Notes under the pieces: generated by a model
Database searches by the model: none
Told to the model about the DNA's origin: nothing
What the model saw: the letters and a program-made list of their open reading frames with translations, nothing else
Made by a program: the position numbers and the translations under genes
In this document: positions 23,258 to 48,716 of the stretch, in pieces
How the letters are laid out: every line of letters starts with the position of its first letter
Position numbering within the stretch: position 1 is the stretch's first letter
Source of the DNA: Streptantibioticus rubrisoli
GTDB taxonomy: Bacteria > Actinomycetota > Actinomycetes > Streptomycetales > Streptomycetaceae
DNA: 64,000 nucleotides
Assembly (NCBI RefSeq): GCF_024436055.1
Contig: NZ_JANFNH010000030.1
Coordinates: 1 to 64,000 of the forward strand
Direction: 5' to 3'

Positions 23258-23700
23258 TCAGCTCGTGCCGCTCACCACGACGGGGCAGTTGCCGCTGTGC
23301 GCGGTGACGACGTGCCCGCTGTGCGCGGTGACGACGTGCCCGCTGTGCGCGGTGACCACGTGGCCGCTGCGCGTCTCCCGCGGCATGTCGACGCGGGTGC
23401 GGCCGTTGCCGGTCTCGGCGGTCACCTTGTAGGGGGCGCAGGGCAGGTCGACGGTGCCCGAGCCGTTGCGCGAGACGCCGTCCACCCGGTCGGGGACGGT
23501 GGTGAGGCCCATCCGCCCCTGCGGGGCCTTCGGGGCGGGGCCTTCAGGCCGGTCCCGGTGATCTGACCGTTGCCGCTGCTCAGGGCGAGGCCGCCGGTGG
23601 CGTCGGCGACGGAGACCATGCCGTTGCCACTGCTGATCTTCAGCGGGGCAGCCGAAGCTGGAGGCCTCCACGGCCCCGTCGTTGTCGTCGATGATCAGCG
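23258..23700 (-). pseudogene. Broken DUF4097 (adhesin-like beta-repeat) gene
   Basis: Pieces of a DUF4097-type beta-solenoid protein lie in two frames. One carries VPDRVDGVSRNGSGTVDL, YKVTAETGNGRTRVDMPRE and three copies of GHVVTAHS. The other carries MVSVADATGGLALSSGNGQI. A frameshift near 23530-23620 splits them. The 3' end also contains the 24-bp tandem repeat. Not translatable as one protein. Confidence 0.55.
23292..23363 (-). repeat. Three tandem 24-bp units
   Basis: Three head-to-tail units starting at 23292, 23316 and 23340; the first two are identical, the third differs at the end. They encode the repeated GHVVTAHS in the broken DUF4097 gene. A partial fourth unit follows. Confidence 0.85.
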
Positions 23701-23856: not shown

Positions 23857-23931
23857 GGGCGCATAGCTCAGCGGTAGAGCGCTGCTCTTACAAAGCAGAT
23901 GTCGGCGGTTCGAATCCGTCTGTGCCCACCA
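23857..23931 (+). tRNA. tRNA-Val (anticodon UAC), AICE integration target
   Basis: 75-nt cloverleaf. Acceptor GGGCGCA pairs with TGTGCCC, the anticodon stem-loop is CTGCT-CTTACAA-AGCAG (anticodon TAC) and the T-arm is GGCGG-TTCGAAT-CCGTC. CCA is encoded (23929-23931). From 23887 the gene is also the attL core of element 1, so the 3' part, including CCA, is supplied by the element. Confidence 0.95.
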
Positions 23932-23933
23932 GC
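23887..23933 (+). other. attL of AICE element 1 (core repeat 1)
   Basis: 47 bp identical to 45813-45859 and, over its first 43 bp, to 58584-58626. It starts in the anticodon loop and runs through the tRNA 3' end. Confidence 0.95.
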
Positions 23934-28117: not shown

Positions 28118-28175
28118 TCGAAGGGACGGAGAGCCGGGGCGGTCGCGGTCTTTGGCGAGAGGCGACCGCCCCGGG
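28118..28175. repeat. Intercistronic hairpin repeat, copy 1
   Basis: Nearly identical to 36419-36478. Both begin TCGAAGGGACG and carry arms CCGGGGCGGTCG / CGACCGCCCCGG (12 bp) around a loop containing CGGTCTTTGGCGAGAG. It lies between ssb and the Prim-Pol gene. It may attenuate transcription or protect mRNA ends. Confidence 0.8.
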
Positions 28176-28180: not shown

Positions 28181-28639
28181 TTAGAACGGCGGCGCGTCGG
28201 AGCCCTGCTGAGCCGCCGGGGAAGCACCCCCGACCTGCCAGGCATCGCCGGAAGCGGCCGGGGCGGAGCTGCGGTTGACGCGCTGGACCTGGGCGGTGGC
28301 GAACAGCAGGCTGGGGCCGATGTCATCGACTTCCAGCGCGAGCATGGAGCGCTTCTCGTCGTTGTCGGTGGTCCAGTCGAACTGCCGCAGACGGCCGGTG
28401 ACCACGACGCGGGTTCCCTTGTGCAGCGTCTCCGTGACGTGTTCGGCGAGCGCGCGCCAGGCGGTGCAGCGCATGAACATCGACGTGCCGTCGCGCCATT
28501 GGCCGCTGGTCTTGTCGTAGGCGCGGGGGGTGGAGGCGACGGTGAACTTCACCATGGCGGCGCCGCTGGGCGTGAAGCGCAGTTCGGGATCGTCGGTCAG
28601 GTTGCCGACGATCGTGAGTGGGGTCTCTCCAGCAGACAT
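28181..28639 (-). CDS. ssb: Single-stranded DNA-binding protein
   Basis: 152-residue OB-fold SSB (TIVGNLTDDPELRFTPSG, VKFTVASTPRAYDK, VVVTGRLRQFDW) with a Gly/Ser-rich linker and the acidic partner-binding tip DAPPF. Element-encoded SSB that would coat single-stranded replication intermediates. Head of the replication operon. Confidence 0.93.
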   Translation of the reverse strand: MSAGETPLTIVGNLTDDPELRFTPSGAAMVKFTVASTPRAYDKTSGQWRDGTSMFMRCTAWRALAEHVTETLHKGTRVVVTGRLRQFDWTTDNDEKRSMLALEVDDIGPSLLFATAQVQRVNRSSAPAASGDAWQVGGASPAAQQGSDAPPF

Positions 28640-30301: not shown

Positions 30302-32398
30302 TCAGGCGTGGTCGGGGTGGAGGTAGACCGAGTGCGGGCCATTGTCCCGGTAGACCAACTGGCCTCGCTCGACTGCTGCTTGGAGGGCGGCGCGGACGGT
30401 TTTGCGATCCTTGCCGACCAAGTCCGCGACCGCGGACGGCTTCATGCCCTCTGCCCCCATGGCCTTGATCGCGTCTAGGGCTGTGGGCAGCCATGCCGGG
30501 CCCTGCTCGCGTTCGCCGCGCAGTGCGGACAGGTTCAGCCCCGGCACGTCGTCGCTGGGTTCGTTGTCGCGGGCGGGTTCGGGTGTGGTGCCGAACCGTT
30601 CGTCGATCTCGCGCATGAACCGCTTGGCGAGCTGGTCGGCCTCCTCCTCATAGGCCCCTTGGTCGCGCAGGGCCCGAAGGTTCAGTCCGCCACCGATGGA
30701 CGGGTGCCGGCCAGCGTCCTTGGCGAGGCTCGGCGGTAGTTGCTCGACGGGGTGAGCGTCGCGCATCCACGCGATGCGCTCGGCATCCCAGCGCTGGGCG
30801 TAGGCGTCTCCAGCAGCCGATCCGGAGACGGCGTCCAACGTCGGGTGCCTGGTGGAGGTAGCGGCCACGATGTCCCGAATCTGGTTCGGAAGGATCCGCC
30901 ACGCCTTGAACAGCGCGGCTGGGGACTCCGGGGTGCCCATGAACCCGGACCCCTTGTAAGGGGCCTGGTCGACACGCAGCCCCCGGCGGCCGGGGAACAT
31001 CTTGCCCAGGTCCATCCCCTCGGTCTCACCGCCGGTCAGGGCGACGCGCACTTTGGCTTCGCGGCGGATCATCAGGTTGCCCAGCACACTGCCGGTCGCG
31101 CCAAGTGCGGTCAGGATGGTGCGGATGCCCATGGCACGCAGCATGCGAATGACTTCCAGGATTTTCGCGGCGAGTTGCTTCATCTGCCGGTCGGTGCTGG
31201 TCAGGATCTCCGCGCCTTCATCGATGACCAGGAGGATTTGGGGGATGTCGGGGCTGATCGGGAGCAGGTCGGTGTTCTTCTTCGCCAGTAAACCCTGGTA
31301 GGCCTTCTTGCGGTGCAGGCCGATGGCCAGCGCCGTATCGAGCATCACCATGGCTTCCTCGTGGGAGGCGGCCAGCCAGTCGATGCCGGGCCGAACGGGC
31401 TGGTCGTCCTCCCGCTCGATCTCGCCGTTCAGGGCGGGCAGGACCCAGGGCAGCCCGGCTGACCCGGCGTTGAGGTCGATGACCCAGGTCAACGCGTCCT
31501 GGGCGCGGGCGAACCCGGCCAGGATCGTGTGGACCATGTTGGTCTTGCCCGAACCGGTCGGGCCCACGACCAGGGCGCACTGTTCGCGCAGGTAGGCGTT
31601 CACGATGTCCGCGTTGGTGCGCACGCCCCACGGGATGCCGGTCAGCACCGACAAGGGCCCGTAGTCGTCAGGGTAGAAACAGTCCTCTTTCAGGACGTTG
31701 ACGGTGGTCACGTCCAGAATGGTCCGGCCCTGGTGGATGCCGGGGGAGGCGGTGGCGGTGCAGCCGTGGGGGAGTTTGGCGTCCGCGGACAGGGCTACGG
31801 AGTACTGGGCGATGCGGTCGTAGGTGATCCCGCCCTGCGGTTCCAGGTCCAGGGAGTACCCGGCCCCGGTCTGCCACTTCTCCACGGCCAGCACCCGTAC
31901 GGTGATGTTGCAGATGCGCTGGATCCGCTCCACCCATTCCGCGGCGATGGCCCGGCGCTCCGCGGACAACTCCCGCGCGATCTGCCGCTGCTGGGCGGCG
32001 ATCGCTTCCTCTTCGCGGGCCTCCTCATACAAGGCGGTAGAGCGGGCGGCGGCGCCGATGCCGACGCCGATGGTGGCCAGCGATCCGAGCGCGGCCCAGG
32101 TCAGCGGTCCGTGGGTGATGGCCCACGTGGTCCACCCGGCTCCGATGAGCCAGGAGGCGGCGCGGGTGGCCAGGGTGCGTCCGGCGTTGCGGACTCGCAG
32201 CCCGGCGACGGTGTGGCCGATGGCGCCCGCGGCGCCGACGGCCAGGGCCCAGCCGGGCGGCATGCCGGTTGCGGCGCCGGTGGTGGCGACGGCGAAGGCT
32301 CCGGTGGTGGCGGACAGGGCGCCGGTCACGGGTCCGTGACCGGCGGCCCAGTCCAGCACCGGGCCACTGCTGTTATTCGCGGTGGCGGTGCTGCTCAT
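30302..32398 (-). CDS. FtsK/SpoIIIE-type DNA translocase (TraB-like)
   Basis: 698 residues. N-terminal membrane region (residues 20-125, several helices), then a RecA-like motor with Walker A VVGPTGSGKTNMVH, Walker B ILLVIDEGAEIL and arginine-finger region IRTILTALGATGSVLGN. The C-terminal winged helix (GMKPSAVADLVGKDRKTVRA) is like the TraB/FtsK gamma domain that reads clt/KOPS repeats. It is the sole translocase expected to move double-stranded AICE DNA between hyphae. Starts one base after the upstream stop. Confidence 0.92.
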   Translation of the reverse strand: MSSTATANNSSGPVLDWAAGHGPVTGALSATTGAFAVATTGAATGMPPGWALAVGAAGAIGHTVAGLRVRNAGRTLATRAASWLIGAGWTTWAITHGPLTWAALGSLATIGVGIGAAARSTALYEEAREEEAIAAQQRQIARELSAERRAIAAEWVERIQRICNITVRVLAVEKWQTGAGYSLDLEPQGGITYDRIAQYSVALSADAKLPHGCTATASPGIHQGRTILDVTTVNVLKEDCFYPDDYGPLSVLTGIPWGVRTNADIVNAYLREQCALVVGPTGSGKTNMVHTILAGFARAQDALTWVIDLNAGSAGLPWVLPALNGEIEREDDQPVRPGIDWLAASHEEAMVMLDTALAIGLHRKKAYQGLLAKKNTDLLPISPDIPQILLVIDEGAEILTSTDRQMKQLAAKILEVIRMLRAMGIRTILTALGATGSVLGNLMIRREAKVRVALTGGETEGMDLGKMFPGRRGLRVDQAPYKGSGFMGTPESPAALFKAWRILPNQIRDIVAATSTRHPTLDAVSGSAAGDAYAQRWDAERIAWMRDAHPVEQLPPSLAKDAGRHPSIGGGLNLRALRDQGAYEEEADQLAKRFMREIDERFGTTPEPARDNEPSDDVPGLNLSALRGEREQGPAWLPTALDAIKAMGAEGMKPSAVADLVGKDRKTVRAALQAAVERGQLVYRDNGPHSVYLHPDHA

Positions 32399-32399: not shown

Positions 32400-33974
32400 T
32401 CAGACGTTCCATCCCTTCTCGGCGTCGGGGCCGTTGCGGGGGTCCTCGTGGCGGGCGATGTCCTGGGCGTGTACCTGCCGAAACAGCGGGCCCATGTCCT
32501 CCGCGACGGCGACGGCGCTCATCAGGGCGCCGAAGATGTCGTTGAAGCCGTCGGCGATCTCCTTCTCCAGCGGGAACTCGCCATCGGAGCGCTCGGCGAG
32601 GGTCTTCATCACGTTCGCCACGCTGGTCAGCGCGGCGGGCAGCCCCTCCACCATGGCCAAAATCTCCATGGCGTTCTCGGGCTCGTAGGAGTTGGCGGCC
32701 TGCTCCATCTCGGACGCGGCCTCTTCAAACTGGAATCCGGACACGTGCTCTCCTTCACTCACCTCAAGTGCGGTACTGGCAGGGATCCCGACGGCCGGGC
32801 GCTCGATGCCTTCGCCCGGCCCCTCCGAACCGTCCGTAGCGGCCTCGGCATCCGCCGCGGCCTCCTGCTCCGCCTGTTCCTCGCGGATTGCCTCGTCCCG
32901 CTCCGCGCGCTGCTCGGCAGCCGTGCGGACCAGACGCCGATACAGGCGGCGGCCGGGGTACATCAGCCACGGGATACCGAACTTGCGCCCGATCCACGTG
33001 GTCAGGCAGCCGAGCAGGCCGACGGGCAGCGCGAGCAGCGCGGCGAGCAGGCGACGACCGTGGAAACGAGCCGCGGACCGGCGCAGAGCCTTCCGCGCCG
33101 CCTTGCGCGCCGGGCCCTTGCGAACCGCGGCACGTTGCGCGGCCACCGTGGCGCCGGTCTTGGCATCGCGCTTGGCGCGGTTCTTGGTAATCGCCGCATC
33201 TCGCCCGGCGCGGGCCTTGCGGCTGGCACCACCGAGCAGGCGCCTCCGGAGGCTGTTGCGCTGGCCCGAACCGGCGTTGCTGCCTGCGGGCCTGGTGTTG
33301 CGGCGTGCGTCGGCCACCGCGCGACGAGCGGCGGTCGTCAGCCCCCGTTGACCGGCCCGCGACCCGGCCGCTGCCCGCTGCGCGGACCGCAGGGCCCTTA
33401 CCTGCCCTACCCGGTCCGCGGCCTTTCCCGCAGCGGCGGTCGCGCGGTTGTACGCGCTCCGACCCGCCTTGGTCTGGGTCTTCCCGCCCGTGGCGGTGCT
33501 GCCATGCCGAGCGGCCGGGCCGGTCCCGCGACGGCGCTGGCCTGGCACGCTGCCCGACCGGCGACCGCCGCGGCTCGAGCGGGAGCCAAGCGAACGGCTC
33601 CCTCCTATCCCCGCACTGCGCAGGCCCGCCCTGCGAGCGGCACCACGGCCAGCGGCGCGCGCTGCGGCGCGTCGGGCCTGGCGGCGTGCGCTGGGCTTGC
33701 GGCCGCGTGTGGCAGCCACCGTGCCCAGGACAACAACTCCCGTAGCAGCCACCATGGCGGCGATCGGGCCACCGGCCAGGGAGGTGGCGGCGACCATGCC
33801 CACGGTCGTATTCGCACCCGATACAGCGAGTGGGACGACCGGCCAACCACCGGGCGTGTGCTCCACCTCGGCCACGGCCGGGCCCTGTGCCGTCTCGGTC
33901 GGGGCGGACACCGGTGGCGGCGGTGTTGTGGGGGCAGCCTCGACGGCTACCGGCTCTGCGCTGAGTTCGGTCAT
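32400..33974 (-). CDS. Large Ala/Arg-rich spread protein (SpdB-like)
   Basis: 524 residues. A short hydrophobic segment pair (ANTTVGMVAATSLAGGPIA, VAATGVVVLGTVAAT) precedes a very basic Arg/Ala region (about 110-300). Then come a third hydrophobic segment (RRLLAALLALPVGLLGCL), a coiled-coil with repeated EQ/EA and a helical tail. Such basic membrane proteins next to traB in Streptomyces plasmids are SpdB-type partners. ATG 33974 with GAGGAG upstream. The basic centre probably binds DNA non-specifically. Confidence 0.7.
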   Translation of the reverse strand: MTELSAEPVAVEAAPTTPPPPVSAPTETAQGPAVAEVEHTPGGWPVVPLAVSGANTTVGMVAATSLAGGPIAAMVAATGVVVLGTVAATRGRKPSARRQARRAAARAAGRGAARRAGLRSAGIGGSRSLGSRSSRGGRRSGSVPGQRRRGTGPAARHGSTATGGKTQTKAGRSAYNRATAAAGKAADRVGQVRALRSAQRAAAGSRAGQRGLTTAARRAVADARRNTRPAGSNAGSGQRNSLRRRLLGGASRKARAGRDAAITKNRAKRDAKTGATVAAQRAAVRKGPARKAARKALRRSAARFHGRRLLAALLALPVGLLGCLTTWIGRKFGIPWLMYPGRRLYRRLVRTAAEQRAERDEAIREEQAEQEAAADAEAATDGSEGPGEGIERPAVGIPASTALEVSEGEHVSGFQFEEAASEMEQAANSYEPENAMEILAMVEGLPAALTSVANVMKTLAERSDGEFPLEKEIADGFNDIFGALMSAVAVAEDMGPLFRQVHAQDIARHEDPRNGPDAEKGWNV

Positions 33975-34134: not shown

Positions 34135-34974
34135 TCAACTGGCGATGGATGCGGGGAAGCTGGCGAGGTACGGCTCGCGGTTCTTGACCCGGCCGCGGGC
34201 GGTACGGGCCGTCGACTCCGACGCGCCCAGCCCTGCCGCGGCCATGGCGGCCGTCATCTGGCTCGTCGTCGGATGAGCGCCCAGCGTCCCGAACAAGGCC
34301 CGCACCAGCCCGTCCACGCGGTTGGCGTAGACGACCGGCGAGCACAGGTCGACGGCCGTCGACCCGGCCTCGACGGCAGGCGCGGACGGCGGCAACTCCG
34401 GCACCGGCGCAGACTCGACGGGCTCCGGCGCGGTGTCCACAACCTGTGGGCGGTCGACGGTCGCGGTGGTGGGCGTCGACGGGTGCTCGACGGGCGTCAC
34501 CACCCGCCGGGCCAGGTAAGCGTGGACCTGCCGCATCAGCGCACCGAAGGCCAGCAGAGCGGCGACTGGTGGGACGGCGGCCACCACGTAGTCCATAGGC
34601 TGGGCCTGTGCTCCCACGCCCGCCACGTTCAACGCGATGGAACCCCCGGAACCAATGCTGGCCAGGGCAACCGCCCACCCGTCCACCCGGCGGGCCAACG
34701 ACGCACGCAGGATGAGCAGTTCACCGATGACGATGAACAGGTCGACGGTGGCGGGCCACGCCCACGACCGCACAGCGGCATCCCCCATGCCATGACGGGC
34801 GGCGACCTCTTGCAGATGCTCGTAGCTCAGCCAGAACGCTGCGGCCGTCAACACCACGGTGAGCGCCCCTGCCAAACCGGTGATCGCGCCCTCGACGGTG
34901 ACGGGCGTCGACGCCCCGTCGACCCCCGTCGACCGCACCCGACACCGGCTCGTCTTCGAACGGTCGGCGACCAT
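34135..34974 (-). CDS. DUF2637 (Spd-type) membrane protein
   Basis: 280 residues. Four transmembrane helices in the first half (ITGLAGALTVVLTAAAFWLS, ATVDLFIVIGELLILRA), matching DUF2637 proteins of actinobacterial transfer operons. A proline-rich linker and a C-terminal small HTH-like domain follow (TTSQMTAAMAAAGLGASEST). Start overlaps the GGDEF stop (TGATG). Element 2 has the counterpart at 49425. Confidence 0.78.
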   Translation of the reverse strand: MVADRSKTSRCRVRSTGVDGASTPVTVEGAITGLAGALTVVLTAAAFWLSYEHLQEVAARHGMGDAAVRSWAWPATVDLFIVIGELLILRASLARRVDGWAVALASIGSGGSIALNVAGVGAQAQPMDYVVAAVPPVAALLAFGALMRQVHAYLARRVVTPVEHPSTPTTATVDRPQVVDTAPEPVESAPVPELPPSAPAVEAGSTAVDLCSPVVYANRVDGLVRALFGTLGAHPTTSQMTAAMAAAGLGASESTARTARGRVKNREPYLASFPASIAS

Positions 34975-35618
34975 CACGCGCCTCCTTCAACGTGACGGGT
35001 GTCGTGGGTGCCGGGCCGTCCGGCGCGACGGCCGTTGACGGTCGCGGCCATCGGGCCGTCGGCGATGAACCAGCCCCCACCGGAACGCTTCGCCCGGTAC
35101 ATCGCCTCATCCGCCCGCCGCAGCGCCAGGTCGAACCGAGCCTCGGGAATGTCCTCGCGGGGGCAGGCGCCAAGCGAGGCGCCCACCGGCAGCTCCTCGC
35201 GCTCGTAGGGCACTGGCTCGGTCAGCGCTTGGTGGATGTTGTGTAGGTCGAACGGCAGATCACCGGGGACCTGTGGGGTGATGATGGCGGCGAACTCATC
35301 GCCCCCGAGCCGTCCGGCTACCCCGTTGAGGACCGCGCACCAGGTCGACAATCGCTGTGCGGCGGTCATGAGCACGGTGTCCCCGGCCGCGTGGCCGTGC
35401 GTGTCGTTGAGGTCCTTGAAGCCATCCATGTCCACCAGCAGCACCACCGCACCCTCCTTGCGGAGCAGGCGGCGGGCCCGGGCGGTGAAGGTTTCGCGGG
35501 TCCACAGGCGGGTCAGCGGGTCGCGATGGGCGGCATGGAGCCGGTGCCGCATCCAGGCGGCCTGTCCCGACCAGCCGACCGCCCCCGCAGCAGCCAACGC
35601 AGTAGTGACGACGCTCAT
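34974..35618 (-). CDS. GGDEF diguanylate cyclase on AICE
   Basis: 214 residues. One N-terminal hydrophobic helix (VVTTALAAAGAVGW), then a complete GGDEF domain: DPLTRLWTRETF, metal-binding VVLLVDMDGFKDLND, the active-site loop AGRLGGDEFAAII and the closing ADEAMYRAKRSG. The GGDEF motif is canonical, so it should make cyclic di-GMP from GTP. No RxxD inhibitory site precedes it, suggesting lack of product feedback. Overlaps both neighbours by 1-4 bp within the transfer operon. In Streptomyces c-di-GMP holds BldD active and delays sporulation. Confidence 0.9.
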   Translation of the reverse strand: MSVVTTALAAAGAVGWSGQAAWMRHRLHAAHRDPLTRLWTRETFTARARRLLRKEGAVVLLVDMDGFKDLNDTHGHAAGDTVLMTAAQRLSTWCAVLNGVAGRLGGDEFAAIITPQVPGDLPFDLHNIHQALTEPVPYEREELPVGASLGACPREDIPEARFDLALRRADEAMYRAKRSGGGWFIADGPMAATVNGRRAGRPGTHDTRHVEGGA

Positions 35619-36130
35619 GACGCACCGCCCTGACCGGTAGGGGCGTAGTACCGCAGGCCGGTGCGCTCGAACCGACCCAGAACACCCTCGCGGGTGAGCG
35701 TGGCGAGCGAGGACTGGCATGCCGCGCGGGTGATCGGCACACACAGGCGGTGGAAGAGAGCAAGCACCCTGCCGGTGGTCCACACGCCGCCCTTGGCGGC
35801 AACTGCCTCACGCAGCAGCCCTACCCGGTCGGGAGCTCCATGGCTCATGCCGCGTCCCCCCACAACGGTGGACGGCCGTACGGCGACGGTGGCGATCAGT
35901 TCGACCGGCGAGGTGGGGTCGTCCAGGTCGCGGCTGGTCTCGCACCACTCCCATTCGACGCCCGGCAGCACCTCGTACCCCAACGTGCTCACGCACTCGG
36001 CGCGTTGGACCGGTGTGGGGATCGGCTCACCAGTGCGCCAGCGACGTTCGGGCCACCGCGATGCGCTCACGTCGTACAGCACGATGTACAGCACCCAGGC
36101 GCCGCTGGTGTTCGTCATCTGCGCTTTCAT
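35615..36130 (-). CDS. DUF6303-like protein fused to winged-helix-like domain
   Basis: 171 residues. The first half (GAWVLYIVLYDVSASRWP) looks like the small DUF6303 proteins of Streptomyces elements. The second (VGLLREAVAAKGGVWTTGRV) resembles a winged helix that is elsewhere a separate gene. An internal ATG with GGGGGA upstream at the junction means the second domain could also be translated alone. Overlaps GGDEF start (ATGA). Confidence 0.55.
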   Translation of the reverse strand: MKAQMTNTSGAWVLYIVLYDVSASRWPERRWRTGEPIPTPVQRAECVSTLGYEVLPGVEWEWCETSRDLDDPTSPVELIATVAVRPSTVVGGRGMSHGAPDRVGLLREAVAAKGGVWTTGRVLALFHRLCVPITRAACQSSLATLTREGVLGRFERTGLRYYAPTGQGGAS

Positions 36131-36402
36131 GCGGCGGCCACCTCCGCGCGCTGGATGCGGCGGTGGAGGCTGACCACCTTGGGCAGCGCCGGGGAGGTGA
36201 TCAGTTCCGGGACGAGGTGGGTGACGCGGTCGAACAACTCCGGGTCGTCGGTGAGGATGTCGCGGGCCGCGTCCAGGCGGGCCGCGCGCTCCTCGGGGCT
36301 CTCGTCGTCCTCGCCGAGCCAGAGCTCCGGGACGATGCCGACGGCCAGTTCGATGAACTCCGAGGCGCTGATGGTCTCGTGGTACGCGATGAACGTACGC
36401 AT
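36127..36402 (-). CDS. AICE hypothetical, 91 residues
   Basis: Acidic helical protein (YHETISASEFIELAVGIVPE, ERAARLDAARDILTDDPE). ATG 36402 has GGAGAG upstream; its stop overlaps the next start (ATGA). No family recognised. Member of the transfer operon. Confidence 0.65.
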   Translation of the reverse strand: MRTFIAYHETISASEFIELAVGIVPELWLGEDDESPEERAARLDAARDILTDDPELFDRVTHLVPELITSPALPKVVSLHRRIQRAEVAAA

Positions 36403-36418: not shown

Positions 36419-36478
36419 TCGAAGGGACGAAGTAGCCCGGGGCGGTCGCGGTCTTTGGCGAGAGACGACCGCCCCGGG
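36419..36478. repeat. Intercistronic hairpin repeat, copy 2
   Basis: Second copy of the 28118-28175 element with the same 12-bp arms and loop. It precedes the 91-residue gene. Confidence 0.8.
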
Positions 36479-37304: not shown

Positions 37305-37413
37305 AGCTACCTAGGTAGCTTTGCTGTTGGTCATGAAGCTACCTAGGTAGCTCTCGCGGCGTCAAGCCGCCGCGAGCACGAAGGAGAAATGACCTAGGTT
37401 GGATACGCTCTAG
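37305..37413 (+). promoter_or_regulatory. GntR operators and promoter
   Basis: Two identical perfect palindromes AGCTACCTAGGTAGCT (37305-37320, 37337-37352), 32 bp apart. A promoter TTGCTG (37321-37326) and TAGGTA (37344-37349) with 17-bp spacing fits exactly so operator 2 covers the -10. A third half-like CCTAGG lies at 37393. A 9-bp hairpin (37353-37376) and AAGGAG follow. Likely the autoregulated KorSA-type control point of element 1. Confidence 0.7.
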
Positions 37414-38194: not shown

Positions 38195-41100
38195 GTGGGC
38201 ACAGTGCAGCGCTGGACAGGAAGGGAATCGCGCGCATTACGGGAAGCCAAGCGCCTTTCGGTGCGGGCGTTCGCAGCTCACGTGGGAGTCGGAAGCCGAA
38301 CAGTGTCCGACTGGGAGTCGCCTTCTAAGCCGAAGGCGATCAGCAAGGCCATCCAGGAGGCACTGGACACGACCTTGGAGCGAAGCAGCCCGGCAGAGCA
38401 GGAGCGGTTCTGGGAAGCCCTCGGCGATGCGCCGAGTGACACCGGACGTTCTGAGACACCGCCAGGCAGCTTCCTCCCCATTCCGAATGCAGAGGCCAGT
38501 CTGGTGCGCAGGGACAACGACTTTGAGGGCCTGATCTCGGTCCTGGAGGAAGCCCGGGATGCCGATGGGATCGCGACCGTGGCGGTTGCCGGTCCGGGCG
38601 GCTTCGGCAAGACGACCATCGCAACGCAGCTGGTCAACGACGAACGCGTCCGCGACCTCTACCCGGAGATTCTCTGGGTGGAGACCGGCGAGGGCTGCAC
38701 CCCGGCCCGAGTTGTGGAGCTGATCTCGGACATCTGCGTCCACCTCAGCGGATCCCGGCCTGCCCTCACCGACCCGGAGCAAGCCGGATTTCATCTCGCG
38801 CGACTGCTCCAGGACCGACGGGCGCTGCTCGTTGTCGACAATGTTTGGAGCGCTGCCGACCTGAGCCCGTTCCTGCTCGGCGGTGAGAAGTGCGTCCGTC
38901 TGGTCACGACGCGGAACGTCCGGGTATGCCCATCGAACGCGCGGGTCGTGCGGCTCGGACCCATGACCGCGAGCGAGATCAGCGAGATGCTCACGCGCAA
39001 CGTGGCGTCCCTGGACCGCACCGAGGCCCAGCAGCTCGCGGAGTCGCTCGGCGGTTGGCCGCTGCTCGCGCAGATCGTCGGCTCCAATGTGGGTCAGGAC
39101 GTGGCCGCGGGCGCCGTGTCGCGGCGCGTGGTGGCTGAAGCATCGGAGACCATCCGCGAGTACGGACCGCAGGCGTTCGACGTGCTGGACGCCGATCAGC
39201 GCCGCAGCGCCATCGGTCAGGCGATCGCTTCGAGCCTGGACGGCTTGGAAGAGAGCATCGTCCTGAACGGCGCGTCAGACTTGCGGGCCCGCTACCTGTC
39301 GTTGGCGGTCTTCCCGGCGGCAACCCCAATTCCTGTGCCCGTGCTCGTGCACTGGTGGAAGACGGCCTTCGGCTGGTCCCCGCAGGCTGTCCGTCAGTTC
39401 TGCCGCGTGCTCGCAGACCGCTCCTTGGTCAGTAGCTACCGAGCCGACACCGAGACGATCACGCTTCACGACGTATTCCGCTCCTACCTGCGCCACCTGG
39501 CAGCGGACGACTGGAAGCAGCTCCACACGTCGCTACTCGACAGCTACCGCGAGGACATCGCGGGGCAGTGGGCGGAACTCGATCCCGAGCATGGGTACTT
39601 GTGGCGCCACCTGCCCCACCACCTTCGCGAAGCAGGGCTTGAGGCCGAACTGGTCTCCCTGCTGTCCTCGCCGGCCTACGTCGTGCGCAAGATCGTGCTG
39701 GTGGGCGAGCAGTCCTTGGTAGCCGACGCGGCTGTGCTCGACGCCCTGCCGCGTTCGAGGCGCACGGAGGCTTGGACCGCTGCACGCGTGATGGCGGTGT
39801 CCGGCTACCTGCTCACCGGGCTTTCGGAACCGGCCGACGTGGCGGCCACGCTGTCGATCGCGCTGCGCCGATCTTCGGCCCCGATACCGCCAGCGGTGCT
39901 CACTGAGGCTTCCTCGCTCAGCGCCGCATTTCGAGCCGGTTGGGTCCGACGCAACCCCGCGCTGGACGCCAAGGACGCAGGTCACGTCGGTGCCGTCGTC
40001 AGCGTGGCCACGGAAGCCGGGCTTGTCGCCACCGGTGGTGAGGACGGCACTGTCCGGCTGTGGGACCTGGCAACTCGCCAGACCTTGCGGGTCTTCCGCG
40101 CGCATACGGGTTGGGTGTACGCCACTGCGCTGTCCCCGGCGGGGGATCTTGTGGCCTCCGCTGGCGACGACGGCCTGATCCGGCTGTGCCGCACCGATTC
40201 CGGAGCCCCGGTCGGTGTCCTCGCGGGGCACTCGCGGCGCATCCGGACCCTTGCGTTCGCCGCTGACGGCAAGCTGCTGGTCTCGGGTGCCGAAGACGGC
40301 GCCGTATGCGTGTGGGACGCCGAGCGGCTGCTGTTGGTCCGTCGGATGCAGACCACGGGGACGCCGGTATGGTCGGTTGCTGTCTCGGGCGGCGAAGAAC
40401 CCGTCGTTGCGGCGAGCGGCGAAGACGAGTTTGTGCGCCTGTTCGATCTCGCTTCCGGGCGGTTGCTCGATGAGAAGGCGCAGCACCGCGACTGGGTGCG
40501 GTCCGTGGCCTTTGCTGCCGAATCGGGGCTGCTCGCCTCGGGATCTGGTGACGGATCGGTCGTGGTGTGGACGACGAAGGGCGGCGTGCTCACCCCGGTG
40601 CGGCGCACGACGGATCTACCGAGTCGGGTCCGCAGCGTCATCGCGTCCGCGGATGGCGCTCTGGTCATCGCCGCGACGGAAAAGCCGACGATTCACGCGC
40701 TGACCGTGGACGGTGAGGCCGGGGTGACGGCACTGCCGCCGGGCGTCGACTGGGTTCGCTCCCTTGCCCGCAGCAGCGACGGCACCGTCGTTGCGGGCTG
40801 CGAGGACGGTGCGGTGCGCCTTTGGCCAGCCCACGGCGGCCCGGTGGAAACGCTCGCGAGCGGGTCGAACACGACGTGGTCGACGGCGTTCTCGCGCACC
40901 GGAGATGCGGTGCTGATCGGCGACGGCGCCGGGACGGTCGACGTGGCGAACGCTGCTGATTCCACGATGCTGCGGACGCTTCCCGCCGGGTATGGGCGCG
41001 TCTGGTCGCTCGCCTCCGGAGCGGACCTTGTGGCTGGCGCTTGCGGCGACGGCGCTGTGCGGGTCTGGTCCCTCACTGACGACGTGTGGGAACTGACCCT

Positions 41101-41719
41101 CAACCAGGACACGAACCGGTCGTGGGCAGTCGCGCTGGCGCGCACCGCGCCGCGTCTGGCGGCCAGCACCGGGGACGGTCACATCCGCTGTTGGGACCTG
41201 CCGAGTGGTGAGCTGCTGTGGTCGCAGGATGTCCACGCCGGCCGACTCCGCTCGATCGCGTTCAACGGCGACGGCCAGGTGCTCGCCGCCTGCGGCGGTG
41301 ACGGATCTGTCCGCGTCTGGCAGGTGGCGAGCGGCGAGTTCGTCTCCCGTTTCGCCTGCCCGAATGGGTGGGCCCGCGCCGTCACGCTGGACGATCAGGG
41401 CACCCGCGCGGCGGTGGGTGCCGGGACCGGCGACATCGCCGTCCGGGACCTGACCGGCGACCGCTTCACCGCCCAGTTGAGCGGCCATTCCGGACGCATC
41501 CTGATGGTGGCCTTCACCGAGAATCCGAATCAGCTGGTCTCCGCAGCCGCTGATGGCACCGTGCGGCTTTGGTCGCTCTCCGAGCAGCAGCAGCTCGCCG
41601 AAGTTCGCATCGATGGCAGTCTCAACTGTGCCGCCTACGATCCTTTCCAGGGCCGCATCCTCGTCGGCAGTGCCGCCGGCGTGGTCGCCCTCGATCTGAC
41701 CCCGCTTCGAGAGGGATAG
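38195..41719 (+). CDS. STAND NTPase: HTH + NB-ARC + about 14 WD40 repeats
   Basis: 1174 residues. An N-terminal XRE-like HTH (LSVRAFAAHVGVGSRTVSDW) comes first. The NB-ARC ATPase has Walker A GPGGFGKTT (133-141), Walker B ALLVVDNVW, sensor VRLVTTRN and an MHD-like ITLHDVFRSYL. From about residue 600 run some 14 WD40 repeats (for example GGEDGTVRLWDLA), enough for two seven-bladed propellers. STAND proteins switch on when the repeat domain senses a ligand, as in plant NLRs and bacterial Avs. GTG 38195 follows GAGGGGG. The stop is 3 bp before the DUF89 phosphatase, so the two are one operon. Confidence 0.92.
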   Translation: MGTVQRWTGRESRALREAKRLSVRAFAAHVGVGSRTVSDWESPSKPKAISKAIQEALDTTLERSSPAEQERFWEALGDAPSDTGRSETPPGSFLPIPNAEASLVRRDNDFEGLISVLEEARDADGIATVAVAGPGGFGKTTIATQLVNDERVRDLYPEILWVETGEGCTPARVVELISDICVHLSGSRPALTDPEQAGFHLARLLQDRRALLVVDNVWSAADLSPFLLGGEKCVRLVTTRNVRVCPSNARVVRLGPMTASEISEMLTRNVASLDRTEAQQLAESLGGWPLLAQIVGSNVGQDVAAGAVSRRVVAEASETIREYGPQAFDVLDADQRRSAIGQAIASSLDGLEESIVLNGASDLRARYLSLAVFPAATPIPVPVLVHWWKTAFGWSPQAVRQFCRVLADRSLVSSYRADTETITLHDVFRSYLRHLAADDWKQLHTSLLDSYREDIAGQWAELDPEHGYLWRHLPHHLREAGLEAELVSLLSSPAYVVRKIVLVGEQSLVADAAVLDALPRSRRTEAWTAARVMAVSGYLLTGLSEPADVAATLSIALRRSSAPIPPAVLTEASSLSAAFRAGWVRRNPALDAKDAGHVGAVVSVATEAGLVATGGEDGTVRLWDLATRQTLRVFRAHTGWVYATALSPAGDLVASAGDDGLIRLCRTDSGAPVGVLAGHSRRIRTLAFAADGKLLVSGAEDGAVCVWDAERLLLVRRMQTTGTPVWSVAVSGGEEPVVAASGEDEFVRLFDLASGRLLDEKAQHRDWVRSVAFAAESGLLASGSGDGSVVVWTTKGGVLTPVRRTTDLPSRVRSVIASADGALVIAATEKPTIHALTVDGEAGVTALPPGVDWVRSLARSSDGTVVAGCEDGAVRLWPAHGGPVETLASGSNTTWSTAFSRTGDAVLIGDGAGTVDVANAADSTMLRTLPAGYGRVWSLASGADLVAGACGDGAVRVWSLTDDVWELTLNQDTNRSWAVALARTAPRLAASTGDGHIRCWDLPSGELLWSQDVHAGRLRSIAFNGDGQVLAACGGDGSVRVWQVASGEFVSRFACPNGWARAVTLDDQGTRAAVGAGTGDIAVRDLTGDRFTAQLSGHSGRILMVAFTENPNQLVSAAADGTVRLWSLSEQQQLAEVRIDGSLNCAAYDPFQGRILVGSAAGVVALDLTPLREG

Positions 41720-41722
41720 CCG

Positions 41723-42874
41723 ATGACCGACCAGGCCCCGGCGATCATTTCGACTGACTCGCCGTTCGCCACGGACGTGTTCGTAAAGCGCCACCCCGCA
41801 CTCATAGAACGGATCCTCGGGGCTTGGCCGCTCGATCCGGAGCAGCAGCGTGCTTTGAGGGCGCTGGCAGACGAGAACGTCGACGGGGTCATGGAGCCCC
41901 TGCCCGCTGACGCGCCGGGGGCAGATCAGTGGCAAGCATGGGGACGCGCCTATTACGGCAAGCCGTGGACAGCGGCGCCGTTCTTGTGGGCGGAATCCTT
42001 CTTCTACCGGCGGCTGCTGGGTGCCGTGGGCTACTTCGATGACGGGCTCTGGCAGGGAGTCGACATCTTCGCGCCGTTCAAGCAGGCAGAGCTAGCGGGC
42101 GAAGTGGTCGCCGCCGAGGTTGGCGCGCTGGACCATATTGCGGAACTGGCCGAGGACGATCGCGGCCAGGCGCTCTTGCTGTCGAGCCTCTGGGGCAACC
42201 GCGCGGACCTCGGGTTTCAGATCACAGCCGGTCGCGGCTCGGAGACCTCGGGCTTGGTGGCCGACGACAGCGACCAGCTCTGGAAGCTGCTCCAGTCCGC
42301 TCGCGGCGGCAGCGTGGCGATCGTCGCCGACAACGCGGGCAGCGAGATGATCGCCGATCTCGTCTTGATCGACCACTTGATCACCTCCGGCACGCTCGGC
42401 GAAGTGGTCCTCTACGTGAAGCCCGCCCCGTACTACGTCTCGGACGCGACTATCAGGGATGTCGGCGATTGCCTGCGCAGGTTGTTGGCAGCCGATGGCG
42501 CCGCCCGAGGCGTGGGAGAGCGGCTGCGGGGTGCGGCGGCGGACGGGCGACTGCGCGTGTGGACAGACGCGTTTTTCTGCGCGCCGTTCGACTTCACCGC
42601 CATGCCAGACAACCTGCGGGCGCAGTTCGCGTCGGTGTCCGCCACCATCCTCAAGGGCGATCTCAACTACCGGCGGCTTGTGGGGGATCGCTGGTGGGAT
42701 CCCACCGTCCCGTTCGGTGAGGTGACCAGTTACTTCCCAGGCCCGGTTGCGGCTCTCCGCACTCTGAAGTCGGACGTCGTGGTCGGGCTGGAGCCGGGCA
42801 CCCTGGCCACGCTGGGGGACTCGGGGACCGCATGGCGGACCGCAGGCACTCACGCACTCATCCAGGCGTCCTAG
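41723..42874 (+). CDS. ARMT1-like DUF89 metal-dependent phosphatase
   Basis: 383 residues, DUF89 damage-control phosphatase closest in motif to eukaryotic ARMT1/YMR027W. Visible blocks: SLWGNRADLGF (155-165), VADNAGSEMIADL (201-213; metal-binding D203/N204), YVKPAPYYVSDATI and ILKGDLNYRRLVGDRWW (309-325). The C-terminal TLKSDVVVGLEPGT also matches. The family removes phosphate from reactive or toxic sugar phosphates and related metabolites. Tightly coupled to the STAND gene, so it may be its effector or a safeguard. All key motifs intact. Confidence 0.88.
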   Translation: MTDQAPAIISTDSPFATDVFVKRHPALIERILGAWPLDPEQQRALRALADENVDGVMEPLPADAPGADQWQAWGRAYYGKPWTAAPFLWAESFFYRRLLGAVGYFDDGLWQGVDIFAPFKQAELAGEVVAAEVGALDHIAELAEDDRGQALLLSSLWGNRADLGFQITAGRGSETSGLVADDSDQLWKLLQSARGGSVAIVADNAGSEMIADLVLIDHLITSGTLGEVVLYVKPAPYYVSDATIRDVGDCLRRLLAADGAARGVGERLRGAAADGRLRVWTDAFFCAPFDFTAMPDNLRAQFASVSATILKGDLNYRRLVGDRWWDPTVPFGEVTSYFPGPVAALRTLKSDVVVGLEPGTLATLGDSGTAWRTAGTHALIQAS

Positions 42875-45812: not shown

Positions 45813-45859
45813 CTTACAAAGCAGATGTCGGCGGTTCGAATCCGTCTGTGCCCACCAGC
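45813..45859 (+). other. Shared att site: attR of element 1 / attL of element 2
   Basis: 47-bp exact copy of the tRNA-Val 3' part. It lacks the 5' half of the tRNA, so it is not a tRNA gene. Confidence 0.95.
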
Positions 45860-45863
45860 AGAT

Positions 45864-45896
45864 AAGCCCCGAAGCGATCAAGCTTCGGGGCTTTTG
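45864..45896. terminator. Terminator of int2
   Basis: AAGCCCCGAAGC (45864-45875) pairs with GCTTCGGGGCTT (45882-45893), followed by T residues on the plus strand. Confidence 0.85.
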
Positions 45897-45920
45897 ACAT
45901 CCGCGTTTGACATCAACGCC
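45895..45920 (+). promoter_or_regulatory. Integrase arm-type sites, left end of element 2
   Basis: TGACATCCG (45895) and TGACATCAACG (45908), 13 bp apart, starting 36 bp after the core, exactly as in element 1 but with AT in place of GG. Confidence 0.6.
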
Positions 45921-45938
45921 GGTGGCCAGGGGCGATCG

Positions 45939-47084
45939 TTAGCGCTGGCGACGACCCAGCATCCGGTCCATGTGGGCCACGGCTTCCCGCTTCAACGCGT
46001 CCGGCACGTGAGTGTAGATGTCCATGGTCACGCTGATCTTGCTGTGCCCGAGGATCTCCATGGCCACGCGGGGATGGACGTTTCCGGCGGCGAGTAGGGT
46101 CGCCGCACCGTGCCGGGCGTCGTGGATCCGGATCCGGGGGAGCCCGGCCTTGGCGGTCAGCCGGTGGAACGAGCGCAGGACGTTGCTGCCCTCGACCGGG
46201 TGACCGGTCCGGGTGGTGAACACCAGGTCTGTCTCCTGCCAGTTGGCTCCCGCCTTTGCACGCATGGCCTGTTGCCGCATCCGTTGCCATCGCAGCGGAG
46301 CAACGCACAGGGCGGGCAGAGGGAGGGTTCGCTTACGACGGTTCTTCGTGTCGTCCTCGTAGTTCTCCCCGCCGACGCGTTGACGCTGCTTCAGTACCTT
46401 GAGCGTGCGGCCGTCCAGGTCGATGTCCTGCCAGCGTAGGCCGACGAGTTCGCCCCGACGTAGGCCGAGCCCAACGGCGAGCATGAAGGCCGCGTACAGC
46501 GGATCCCGGCGTGCGGCCAAGATGAAGGCCAACGTCTCCTCCAGCGTCCACAGTTGACCTTCGTAGGTGTCCACCTTCGGAGCCTCAACGAGCTTCACGA
46601 CGTTCCGCGTGATCAGTTCTTCTCGACAGGCCGCCGACAGAGCTGACCGCAGAACCCGGTGCGATTCCCTGGCGGTTGCCTCAGTGGTGGCTTTGGCGAT
46701 CTGTGTCAACGCCGTCCGAACATCCCGCACGCTCAGCTTCTCCAGCGTCTTCTTGCCCAGCTGGGGGACCAGGTAGAGCCGTACGTGAGTCTCGTACTTG
46801 GCGTATGTGGTGCGCTTCCGGCGAGGCTTGACGATCTGCTCCAGCCAGTACGGCAGCCATTCGGCGACCTTGGCCGAGCGAGTGGGTACCGGTACGCCGC
46901 TGTCGACCTTCTCCAGCAGTTCACGGCGCTTGGCGTCGCACTCGGCCCAGGTCTTGCCGTAGGCGAACTTGCGGGCGCGGGTGCCGTCGGGCTGGAGCAC
47001 GTAGACGGCGGCTTGGTACCGGCCGTCCTTGCGGCAGGTGATGGTGCCCGCGCCGTTGGGGTTGCGCTTGCGTTGGGTGGCCAT
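45939..47084 (-). CDS. int: AICE tyrosine integrase 2
   Basis: 381 residues, same length and architecture as Int1. AP2-like N-terminal domain (GAGTITCRKDGRYQAAVYV), core-binding domain (RTTYAKYETHVRLYLVPQ), catalytic Arg (GLGLRRGELVGLRW), HxxR (IHDARHGAATLL), His (ILGHSKISVT) and Tyr (DIYTHVPD). ATG at 47084 overlaps the xis stop. All catalytic residues are present, so it may still excise element 2. Its N-terminal domain differs from Int1 where arm DNA would be read. Confidence 0.95.
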   Translation of the reverse strand: MATQRKRNPNGAGTITCRKDGRYQAAVYVLQPDGTRARKFAYGKTWAECDAKRRELLEKVDSGVPVPTRSAKVAEWLPYWLEQIVKPRRKRTTYAKYETHVRLYLVPQLGKKTLEKLSVRDVRTALTQIAKATTEATARESHRVLRSALSAACREELITRNVVKLVEAPKVDTYEGQLWTLEETLAFILAARRDPLYAAFMLAVGLGLRRGELVGLRWQDIDLDGRTLKVLKQRQRVGGENYEDDTKNRRKRTLPLPALCVAPLRWQRMRQQAMRAKAGANWQETDLVFTTRTGHPVEGSNVLRSFHRLTAKAGLPRIRIHDARHGAATLLAAGNVHPRVAMEILGHSKISVTMDIYTHVPDALKREAVAHMDRMLGRRQR

Positions 47085-47266
47085 CAGGCAGCCGCCTCCA
47101 GTTGGTTCGTGAGGTATTCGCGGACGGCGCGGGCCGGGATGCGGCGAAGGCGGCCGATGGTGATGGAGGGCAGGCGGCGGGACCTGATCAGGTCGTAGAC
47201 CGTCGAGCGGCCGACTCGCAGCCATGCCATGACCTCTGGCACGGTCAGCAGTGCGTCGTCAGGCAT
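47084..47266 (-). CDS. xis: Excisionase 2
   Basis: 60-residue HTH (LTVPEVMAWLRVGRSTVYDL, RLPSITIGRLRRIP), homologous to Xis1. ATG 47266 preceded by GGAGAGCC. It overlaps the 3' end of the rep gene by 8 bp. Confidence 0.92.
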   Translation of the reverse strand: MPDDALLTVPEVMAWLRVGRSTVYDLIRSRRLPSITIGRLRRIPARAVREYLTNQLEAAA

Positions 47267-48584
47267 GGGTGGGCTCTCCTTCCGTTCCGGAAGCGGGTGT
47301 GAGGGTGGCGGCCAGCCATTCCTCGCCGCGGGTGAGGCCGGTTCCGGCGAAGGTCCAGTGGGCGAGGACGAGCGTCGTCTCGCCGGTTTCGGCGTCCGTT
47401 GGGCGGTTGTCGGCCTCGTTGCGAGCGGTGATGGCTTGGAGGCGTCGCCATTCGGCGCGGGCGGTGCGGAGGGCGCCGAGGGTGGTGGAGTAGCGGCGGG
47501 TCTTGGTGGAGAAGTGGCCGCGGAAGCCGAGCATGTGTGCCCAGGCCCGGAGCCGGAGGTCCTCCAATTCCCGGCGTCCGCCGAGCGCCCAGGCGGTGCG
47601 GATCATGCGTCGGGCGTGGTCGCTGATGGAGAGGCGGGCCAGCTCGGCGAGGAACTTGATCGGCCGGTCAAGGGTGCCCGTCGCTGTCTCGGCGCCCTTG
47701 GTCGCGTACTTGGCGATGTAGGCGGCGACCGCGCGATCGGTCAGCTCGGTGTGGCCGTCGAAGTCGGCGCTGCGGATGGTGCGTACGTCGAGCTGGCGAC
47801 CGAAGGCGAAGACGTGTTGCCGTCCGTCGACGTCCGGGCCGGTGATGTGGGCGGTGGTGGCGGCGCGGATGGCGTCGGTCAGCAGCTCGGCGGTTGCCCA
47901 GGCCGGGGGTGGGGTGGTGGCGCCGTCGGGGCCGTCGATGCGGATGACGGCGTGGAAGTGGACCAGGCCGCGCCGCTGGTACTCGGCGACCTTCGCGAAG
48001 CTGACCCGCGCGAACCGGCGGAAGGCACGTTGGGCCAGCCCTGCCCGCTTGGCGATCTCGCGGCGCAGGTAGATGGAGAAGCGCCGCCAGAGAGCTCACG
48101 CGTGTGCGTTCCAGAGCACCGCGGCTTCGTAGTCGTAGGAGTCGGGGTCGAGTGGCGTCCCCAACTCCGGCGCGTCGGCGGGGTGCACGGCTCCGCAGCG
48201 GCAGCGGCCGGAGTCGGGGCGGTTGTGGACCGGGCCGAAGCTGGGGGCGGTGAAGGTGGCGAAGACGCGCGGGTGCGTGGCGACTTGCTCCGGGGTGCCT
48301 TTGCCGCCGCGTAGTCCGGCGGTGATGAGCTGGTAGGTGTCGCGGCGGTAGACCTCGGCGCAGGCCGGGCAGCGGGTGGTGCGGCGGTTGTTGCAGCGGA
48401 CCAGGAGGTGACCGGCGGGAAGCTGATCCGAGGTGATGTGGTGGACAAGTGGACCGATCTCGCCGGTGGCGGTGTCCAACGCGTACTCGGAGCGGTGACC
48501 GTCAAGGCGGATCGGGTTGGTGCAGCCGCCCAGGCCGGAGAGTTGGCGCAGCAGCGCGGGCATGGTGCCGAGCGAGGCCAACAT
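47259..48584 (-). pseudogene. RepSA-type replication initiator interrupted by in-frame TGA
   Basis: A 441-codon frame is open throughout except for TGA at 48098-48096. N-terminal part: cysteine ligands (CNNRRTTRCPACAEVY, GRCRCGAVH) and VLWNAHA just before the stop. C-terminal part: WRRFSIYLRREIAKRAGL, the HUH-like GLVHFHAVIR and the candidate catalytic tyrosine region VAAYIAKYATKG. RepSA starts rolling-circle replication in pSAM2-like elements. The catalytic half lies after the stop, so the protein is inactive unless the stop is read through. An upstream AAAGGAG points to an ATC codon, so the true start is unclear. Confidence 0.85.
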
Positions 48585-48716
48585 GCCGAGTTCCGGCAGC
48601 GGGGGCGGGGTGGCCCGGGTGATGATGGTTGTCTCCTTTGCGGCTTAGGTCGTGAAGGGTGGGCTGCCGGGGCGGTGGATGCTTGGCGGTATCTGGGCCG
48701 CCCCGGCAGTTGTTGA

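What the first reader, a model, noticed from the sequence alone, without database searches (positions are those of the whole stretch)
34974..35618. Diguanylate cyclase encoded within a conjugation operon
A canonical GGDEF enzyme with no inhibitory RxxD site is overlapped with DUF2637 and DUF6303-like genes. In Streptomyces c-di-GMP blocks development through BldD, so the element could hold its host in vegetative hyphae, the stage at which conjugation happens.
Basis: partly seen in the sequence, partly recalled or inferred. Interest (0 to 1): 0.65.

Follow-up and report, generated by a model that had tools for sequence, protein, structure and literature searches.

The report
Mobile-element enzyme that makes c-di-GMP
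A self-transferring DNA element in a streptomycete-like bacterium carries a small enzyme predicted to make the signal c-di-GMP, which delays spore formation in Streptomyces; relatives sit on many such elements, so the elements may slow their host's development while they spread.

Summary
Window 34974-35618, minus strand, encodes an intact 214-aa GGDEF enzyme without the RxxD feedback site. It overlaps a DUF6303 and a DUF2637 gene by 4 nt each, inside a 21.9-kb conjugative element integrated at tRNA-Val.

It is not a one-off. 115 of 297 genomes of the same family match this short type at E<=1e-50. Regions inspected show at least four settings: AICEs like this one, RepSA/pSAM2-type AICEs, AICEs with another gene order, and linear plasmids. 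On the catalytic core alone, 57 sequences of this type separate from 14 chromosomal ones (support 98); 36 of the 57 have an integrase, replication or transfer gene in the stretch held. Catalytic residues are kept in 57 of 57, RxxD in none. A GRRxGRxG tail marks most branches.

The Streptomyces cyclase CdgD (SCO5345) falls, by its gene number, in S. coelicolor's pSAM2-like island SCO5327-5350; I saw no paper that says so. Overexpression of its S. ghanaensis orthologue blocks development; deletion has no morphological phenotype.

The host has a c-di-GMP-binding-type BldD. The developmental-brake idea is plausible, unproven and testable: these enzymes may cause the delay seen as 'pocks'.

The parts
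34974..35618 (-). GGDEF diguanylate cyclase, 214 aa
   Evidence: Pfam GGDEF 105.7 bits; residues; model
35529..35612 (-). N-terminal helix of the cyclase, residues 3-30; hydrophobic start, possible membrane anchor
   Evidence: AlphaFold model helix 3-30; mean hydropathy up to 1.12 over 19 residues, modest
35292..35306 (-). GGDEF motif, residues 105-109
35010..35036 (-). C-terminal tail motif NGRRAGRPG, residues 195-203, low-confidence (disordered) in the model
   Evidence: GRRxG in 45 of 45 proteins of groups A, D and P; pLDDT under 50
34135..34977 (-). DUF2637 membrane-type gene, 280 aa, 4-nt overlap with the cyclase
   Evidence: 46.1 bits
35615..36130 (-). DUF6303 gene, 171 aa, 4-nt overlap with the cyclase
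   Evidence: 98.6 bits
36127..36402 (-). x91, 91-aa protein of unknown family; relatives overlap the cyclase gene directly in 18 of 23 loci
32400..33974 (-). 524-aa basic protein, no family match
30302..32398 (-). TraB/FtsK-like P-loop translocase candidate, 698 aa
   Evidence: weak FtsK_SpoIIIE, 16.1 bits under cut-off 24; relatives
28181..28639 (-). SSB
   Evidence: 91.1 bits
27182..28096 (-). Prim-Pol replication protein
   Evidence: 39.5 bits
25582..26958 (-). DUF3631 protein
   Evidence: 210.1 bits
25141..25485 (-). HTH_17 protein, probable xis (start may be 25326)
   Evidence: 47.1 bits
23996..25141 (-). tyrosine integrase
   Evidence: 103 bits
37416..37799 (+). GntR-family regulator, divergent from the operon
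   Evidence: 63.1 bits
37305..37352 (.). two perfect copies of AGCTACCTAGGTAGCT (37305-37320, 37337-37352), probable operator
   Evidence: none in 100 shuffles; that the GntR protein binds them is inferred
23896..23933 (+). att copy at the tRNA-Val 3' end
45822..45859 (+). att copy at the far end of the element, identical

Best explanation
The gene encodes a member of a family of conjugative-element diguanylate cyclases. Shown by sequence: it is intact, lacks the feedback site, and is chained by overlaps to transfer-operon genes in a tRNA-integrated AICE; relatives recur in several conjugative backbones. Inferred: when the element's repressor is relieved for transfer, the cyclase is made together with the membrane (DUF2637) and translocase (TraB-like) proteins and raises c-di-GMP. 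c-di-GMP loads the host BldD (and probably RsiG, recalled, not tested) and keeps the mycelium in vegetative growth while the element transfers and spreads. This would supply the developmental delay that is visible as a 'pock'.
For: Intact enzyme: Pfam, fold, catalytic residues 57 of 57. RxxD in 0 of 57 proteins of this type against 7 of 14 chromosomal ones (Fisher p 2.6e-6, not corrected for relatedness). Coupling: 4-nt overlap with a downstream ORF of 45 or more codons in 29 of 33 genes; x91 overlaps the cyclase in 18 of 23 loci. Recurrence: 115 of 297 family genomes, 11 of 17 genera at E<=1e-50; an integrase, replication or transfer gene in the stretch held for 36 of 57; RepSA (502 bits) and FtsK (109 bits) in L240; six annotated plasmid regions. 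One lineage on the core domain: 57 versus 14, support 98. Host BldD. SCO5345 = cdgD, inside the span of island SCO5327-5350. cdgDgh overexpression gives bald colonies. [quoted passage not shown]
Against: Deletion of cdgD gives no morphological phenotype. In S. venezuelae cdgD was transcribed in all stages, not only in transfer, and CdgD-FLAG was hardly detected. In-vitro activity of CdgDgh could not be shown. 92 of 111 TraB-like loci have no such cyclase within 12 kb, so transfer does not need it. A pIJ101 derivative forms pocks; as I recall it has no GGDEF gene. No BldD consensus site (written from recall) in the window. No expression data; operator and repressor roles are inferred. Homology of CdgD itself to this protein rests on island position, length and gene order. 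9 of 57 proteins of this type have no element marker in the stretch held (two of them are on plasmid records).
Confidence: 0.45

Rival explanations
1. Local signalling: the cyclase is held at the membrane and feeds c-di-GMP to, or switches by contact, the element's own proteins (x91, DUF2637, TraB-like), so that transfer or spread is timed; host development is not the target.
For: Hydrophobic N-terminal helix; conserved disordered GRRxGRxG tail in branches A, D and P; direct overlap with x91 in 18 of 23 loci and DUF2637 as a frequent neighbour (13 of 20 selected proteins). PMC7911125 speculates on a local c-di-GMP micro-compartment for CdgDgh.
Against: Partners are not constant: branch C has neither x91 nor the tail as a rule, and plasmid versions have other neighbours. 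No known c-di-GMP receptor domain was found in the window neighbours by Pfam. Overexpression has global effects.
Confidence: 0.25
2. Accessory cargo: a cyclase that alters host physiology (for example antibiotic output) in the integrated state, with no role in transfer; it lies in the operon by history.
For: Most TraB-like loci lack it (92 of 111). Deletion of cdgDgh raises moenomycin output without morphological change. Transcribed in all stages in S. venezuelae. SXT/R391 ICEs carry cyclases in a variable hotspot.
Against: Found inside overlapping gene chains with operon neighbours in 29 of 33 genes, in several backbones, rather than in the cargo end of the element.
Confidence: 0.15
3. The protein is not made or not active under any natural condition: an evolutionary remnant.
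For: CdgD-FLAG hardly detected; CdgDgh activity not shown in vitro.
Against: Catalytic residues kept in 57 of 57 proteins that are often only about 50% identical; open frames.
Confidence: 0.1

Closest known systems
CdgD (SCO5345 of S. coelicolor; ssfg_02343 of S. ghanaensis; sven3999/vnz19760 of S. venezuelae)
   Same: Stand-alone GGDEF protein, 204 aa in S. ghanaensis, no RxxD, in an operon with genes of unknown function. SCO5345 lies, by its number, in the pSAM2-like island SCO5327-5350. In branch C found here, L244 has the order int - xis - 471 aa - 61 aa - GGDEF, as expected from SCO5349 down to SCO5345, and 4 of 10 branch C members have open frames of 205 codons.
   Different: The window protein is of branch A, with the GRRxGRxG tail and a Prim-Pol/DUF2637 backbone; branch C proteins lack the tail.
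pCdgG of S. venezuelae (pvnz37430) and other Streptomyces plasmid cyclases
   Same: Plasmid-borne stand-alone GGDEF (PMC6205966 Table 1); six plasmid regions inspected here carry such a gene.
   Different: WhiB and/or Lsr2 genes are nearby in 4 of the 6 regions, and no DUF2637 gene is annotated there. I did not see pCdgG's sequence.
Cyclases of SXT/R391 ICEs (DgcK/DgcL, names recalled) and of a Vibrio genomic island
   Same: Diguanylate cyclases on integrative elements: three SXT/R391 ICEs (PMC2791158 passages); island cyclases that change biofilm and motility of new hosts (PMC10672970 abstract).
   Different: Gammaproteobacterial; in the SXT/R391 case in a variable hotspot. No sequence comparison was made.
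pSAM2- and SLP1-type AICEs
   Same: tRNA integration, tyrosine integrase, Prim-Pol or RepSA replication, FtsK-like transfer.
   Different: The two AICE surveys looked at do not use the word GGDEF: 0 hits in PMC3218068 and in PMC9513070.

Membership tests
diguanylate cyclase (GGDEF) | GGDEF domain above the curated cut-off | tested here: met
   Pfam 105.7 bits, cut-off 23.8; TIGR00254 96 bits, cut-off 37.4
diguanylate cyclase (GGDEF) | metal- and GTP-binding residues (PleD D327, N335, D344, GG(D/E)EF; quoted in PMC7911125) | tested here: met
   D63, N71, D80, GGDEF 105-109
diguanylate cyclase (GGDEF) | fold | tested here: met
   model pLDDT 88.3; the 50 PDB matches listed are GGDEF proteins, best E 1.7e-13
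diguanylate cyclase (GGDEF) | makes c-di-GMP | not testable with these tools
   needs an assay; D80 (PleD D344) is kept, which from recall argues against hybrid GMP-AMP cyclases
CdgD-type element cyclases | stand-alone GGDEF of about 200-215 aa without RxxD | tested here: met
   214 aa, no RxxD
CdgD-type element cyclases | groups with branch C (RepSA AICEs) apart from chromosomal cyclases | tested here: met
   support 98 on 159 core columns, quick method, 14 chromosomal rows
CdgD-type element cyclases | sequence homology to S. coelicolor CdgD itself | not tested
   sequence not obtained; link by island span, length and gene order
AICE | site-specific integration in a tRNA gene with att repeats | tested here: met
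AICE | AICE-type replication protein | tested here: met
   Prim-Pol; Prim-Pol in AICE SLP1 per PMC3218068
AICE | FtsK/TraB-type translocase | tested here: inconclusive
   FtsK_SpoIIIE 16.1 bits, cut-off 24; 8 of 18 relatives match at E<=0.01
AICE | excision, transfer and pock formation | not testable with these tools
   needs mating experiments
Spd (spread) protein | inactivation reduces pock size | not testable with these tools
   definition from PMC4170104

The most novel reading that the evidence does not exclude
Conjugative elements of the streptomycete family recruited, once, a diguanylate cyclase without feedback control that spread through AICEs and linear plasmids. It is the enzymatic cause of the developmental delay (pock) in mycelium being invaded by these elements: a mobile element commandeers the host's c-di-GMP/BldD checkpoint to keep hyphae in the state in which DNA can spread. 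The GRRxGRxG tail is a docking motif that targets the enzyme to the transfer apparatus or to DNA. CdgD, treated as an odd chromosomal cyclase, is one of these.
Probability: 0.25. Interest if true: 0.8.

Novelty: new variant of a known kind. Interest (0 to 1): 0.6.

Why it matters
[quoted passage not shown] A transfer-operon gene with a known kind of enzymatic activity that acts on the master developmental switch makes that question testable with one point mutation. It would also reinterpret CdgD: a cyclase described as the least conserved of its genus and without developmental phenotype is easier to understand if it belongs to a mobile element. It adds a development-directed case in a mycelial Gram-positive to the few known cyclases on conjugative elements.

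Tried and rejected
1. The tail codons form a perfect 7-bp stem in the window, so I tested whether the motif is an RNA or DNA hairpin (for example a clt-like site). Codons vary synonymously and the predicted structures change across 30 sequences; rejected.

2. A c-di-GMP riboswitch or other known RNA in the window at gathering thresholds: only the tRNA was found.

3. A BldD consensus site (written from recall) in the window: 0 matches, 0.68 expected.

5. x91 was folded for a clue: pLDDT 67.1, too low for a fold search. No x91 match in plasmids at E<=1e-5.

6. Pock literature: one search was useless; one search gave the two papers looked at.

7. The frame that I first took for the gene below DUF2637 (454 aa, 'g454') was wrong; hits to it are ignored. 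The gene is 32400-33974.

Two facts against my reading, cdgD transcription in all stages and no in-vitro activity of CdgDgh, were added, and confidence in the best explanation was lowered from 0.5 to 0.45 for them.

Rows dropped or circular: A3 used 30 cyclases; L030, L033 and L035 (divergent) and L027, L039 and L040 (missed by the script) were left out of A3, but all six are in the tree. L245, L257 and L258 were duplicates. A1 left out the L048 neighbour, a DNA-methylase-like protein. The tree left out L003, L004 and L008 (partial domains). One search counts some genes twice (L009-L038 and L041-L060 overlap). The TraB profile A2 was built from 18 cyclase-bearing loci; 7 of the 19 co-located loci are among them, 12 are not. 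The DUF2637 and x91 profiles used also come from such loci. L027 has x91 but no cyclase coordinates and is not in the 18 of 23.

Full report
Observation. The finding gives no strand; the gene is on the minus strand at exactly 34974-35618. The 214-aa product matches Pfam GGDEF with 105.7 bits. Its start overlaps the stop of a DUF6303 gene (ATGA) and its stop overlaps the start of a DUF2637 gene (GTGA). Above DUF6303 a further overlapping small gene, x91 (36127-36402), has no family match in Pfam or NCBIfam. Thus four genes, x91 - DUF6303 - cyclase - DUF2637, are chained by 4-nt overlaps.

The element. It is a 21.9-kb insertion at the 3' end of tRNA-Val, with identical 38-bp att copies at 23896 and 45822. 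It has an integrase, an HTH xis, DUF3631, Prim-Pol and SSB proteins, a P-loop protein with weak FtsK similarity, and a divergent GntR regulator. Two perfect 16-bp dyads lie just upstream of the GntR gene. A third att copy at 58593 (3 mismatches) and a second integrase-like ORF at 45939 indicate a second element in tandem. That these are AICE features follows from PMC3218068 (passages).

The enzyme. Metal, GTP and catalytic positions are present. The AlphaFold model (pLDDT 88.3) is a GGDEF domain behind one N-terminal helix, with a low-confidence tail; the 50 PDB matches listed are GGDEF proteins. There is no RxxD. The activity itself is inferred, not shown.

It is a family. In 297 genomes of the same taxonomic family, 115 genomes in 11 of 17 genera have a match at E<=1e-50 to a profile of 30 such cyclases; I inspected the surroundings of 40 regions, not of all matches. 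In a class-wide sample of 148 genomes, 15 match at E<=1e-40; five of these are in the window's own family and have best scores above 185 bits, and the ten outside it score at most 146.2 bits in open frames of 506-808 aa. The family name is not given by the tools; the host BldD and the named Streptomyces loci and plasmids make Streptomycetaceae very likely (inference).

Contexts. (A) x91 - cyclase - DUF2637 - TraB-like AICEs (13 of 20 selected neighbour proteins match DUF2637). (C) RepSA AICEs: L240 has int, xis, RepSA (502 bits), small genes, the cyclase and further on FtsK (109 bits). (D) DUF2637 before the cyclase, then TraB (L257-L259). (P) Linear plasmids: in six annotated regions, WhiB and/or Lsr2 genes are nearby in 4 and FtsK/TraB genes in 2. 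Of the 57 tree rows, 36 have an integrase, replication or transfer gene in the stretch held (21 of 30 in A, 5 of 5 in D, 10 of 10 in C, 0 of 2 unplaced, and 1 of 10 in P, which includes two plasmid records); 48 have at least one element marker; 9 have none. In 101 genomes, 19 of 111 TraB-like matches have a cyclase within 12 kb, and 9 of the 15 that score 1000 bits or more; about 0.17 co-locations are expected by chance. The TraB profile was built partly from such loci, but 12 of the 19 are not among them. None of the six other GGDEF proteins of the window's own genome lies on a contig with a TraB match. The association is real, but most TraB-like loci lack the cyclase.

One lineage. On the catalytic core (N-terminal helix and tail left out), 57 sequences of this type separate from 14 chromosomal ones with SH-aLRT support 98 (quick method, one long-branched chromosomal row). 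Catalytic residues are kept in 57 of 57; RxxD is in 0 of 57 against 7 of 14 (p 2.6e-6 without correction for relatedness). GRRxG in the tail is present in 45 of 45 proteins of groups A, D and P and in 1 of 2 unplaced ones; the branch C proteins printed in full lack it, and so do the six other GGDEF proteins of the host genome. Tail codons vary synonymously, so it is a protein motif. The cyclase gene overlaps a downstream ORF by 4 nt in 29 of 33 genes, and x91 overlaps it by 1-4 nt in 18 of 23.

Link to known biology. PMC7911125 (passages; section 16) lists cdgDgh, a 204-aa stand-alone GGDEF without RxxD, in an operon with three unknown genes, with sco5345 (cdgD) as orthologue; it could not show activity of CdgDgh in vitro but cites Liu 2019 for CdgD as an active cyclase. 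PMC1934918 (passages) lists island SCO5327-5350, 21.3 kb, tRNA-Arg, 114-bp repeats, 'pSAM2 integration'; PMC3017869 (passage) calls SCO5336-5349 an integrated plasmid similar to pSAM2; PMC3218068 names the AICE Sco5349 (passages). By its number CdgD lies in this island. PMC6205966 (passages; Discussion read whole) calls CdgD the least conserved such protein, without effect on development in S. venezuelae; its transcript was present in all stages while the protein was hardly detected; the words 'mobile' and 'conjugative' do not occur in it. In searches of the held library (only listed rows and abstract starts seen, apart from the papers named) I saw no paper that places CdgD or a GGDEF gene in an AICE transfer operon; most subscription journals are not held.

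Mechanism. Shown elsewhere: c-di-GMP makes BldD a dimer that represses sporulation genes, through an RXD-X8-RXXD signature (PMC4151990 passages). The window's host has one BldD-type protein (131.5 bits to PF21179) with RGD-x8-RQDD, nearly identical to solved BldD C-terminal domains. Overexpressed cdgDgh gives bald colonies; its deletion has no morphological effect. AICE spread delays development and sporulation of the recipient, seen as pocks (PMC9513070 passages); pocks depend on spd genes of unknown function (PMC4170104 passages). Inferred: the cyclase is made with the transfer genes, raises c-di-GMP without feedback, and holds the invaded mycelium in vegetative growth. The missing deletion phenotype in cultures without mating agrees with this, but equally with no function; transcription of cdgD in all stages speaks against transfer-only expression. 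A local role at the transfer machinery remains a serious rival because of the N-terminal helix, the conserved tail and the coupling to x91.

Verdict. New here are the breadth and apparent common origin of conjugative-element cyclases, their uniform lack of the feedback site, the tail motif, and the placement of CdgD inside an AICE.

Noticed in passing
window 45813-58630: A second integrative element stands in tandem: integrase-like ORF (45939-47084, minus), xis-like ORF, a DUF2637-like ORF by eye at 49425-50075 (not tested) and an FtsK/SpoIIIE protein at 50160-51536 (113.6 bits), ended by a third att copy at 58593. No GGDEF match there.
   Followed up: partly
window 28134-28175 and 36437-36478: A 42-nt hairpin, 98% identical in two copies, lies about 35-38 nt upstream of the Prim-Pol gene and of x91; similar cores occur in L047, L051, L052 and L053. 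Possible shared 5'-UTR control of replication and transfer operons.
   Followed up: partly
window 38195-42874: Cargo pair: a 1174-aa NB-ARC plus WD40-repeat protein (PADLOC HEAT-ARM_XIII, 80.4 bits, over the WD40 part) followed by an ARMT1-like protein; possibly a defence or signalling module.
   Followed up: partly
L041 (G000:C7:46801-66800): The same genome carries a second AICE of this type with its own cyclase, 65% identical.
   Followed up: partly
L260:3337-3828 and L262:2961-3425: On two Streptomyces linear plasmids a gene annotated as Pycsar effector lies 1-2 kb upstream of the cyclase gene (the L260 copy matches PycTM): possibly nucleotide-signalling defence.
   Followed up: no
L039, L040, L261, L262: Plasmid cyclase genes have WhiB (L039, L040, L261) and/or Lsr2 (L039, L040, L262) genes shortly downstream, in 4 of 6 inspected regions: further developmental or silencing regulators on the same elements.
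   Followed up: partly
L041 11095 and 11120; L044 10751 and 10775; L049 8871 and 8895: Three AICEs share a paired perfect dyad CTGGTGCGCACCAG, 24-25 nt apart, near the cyclase operon: probable operators of another repressor.
   Followed up: no
window 23292-23373: Three direct repeats of a 34-nt stretch at 24-nt spacing just outside the tRNA-Val gene.
   Followed up: no
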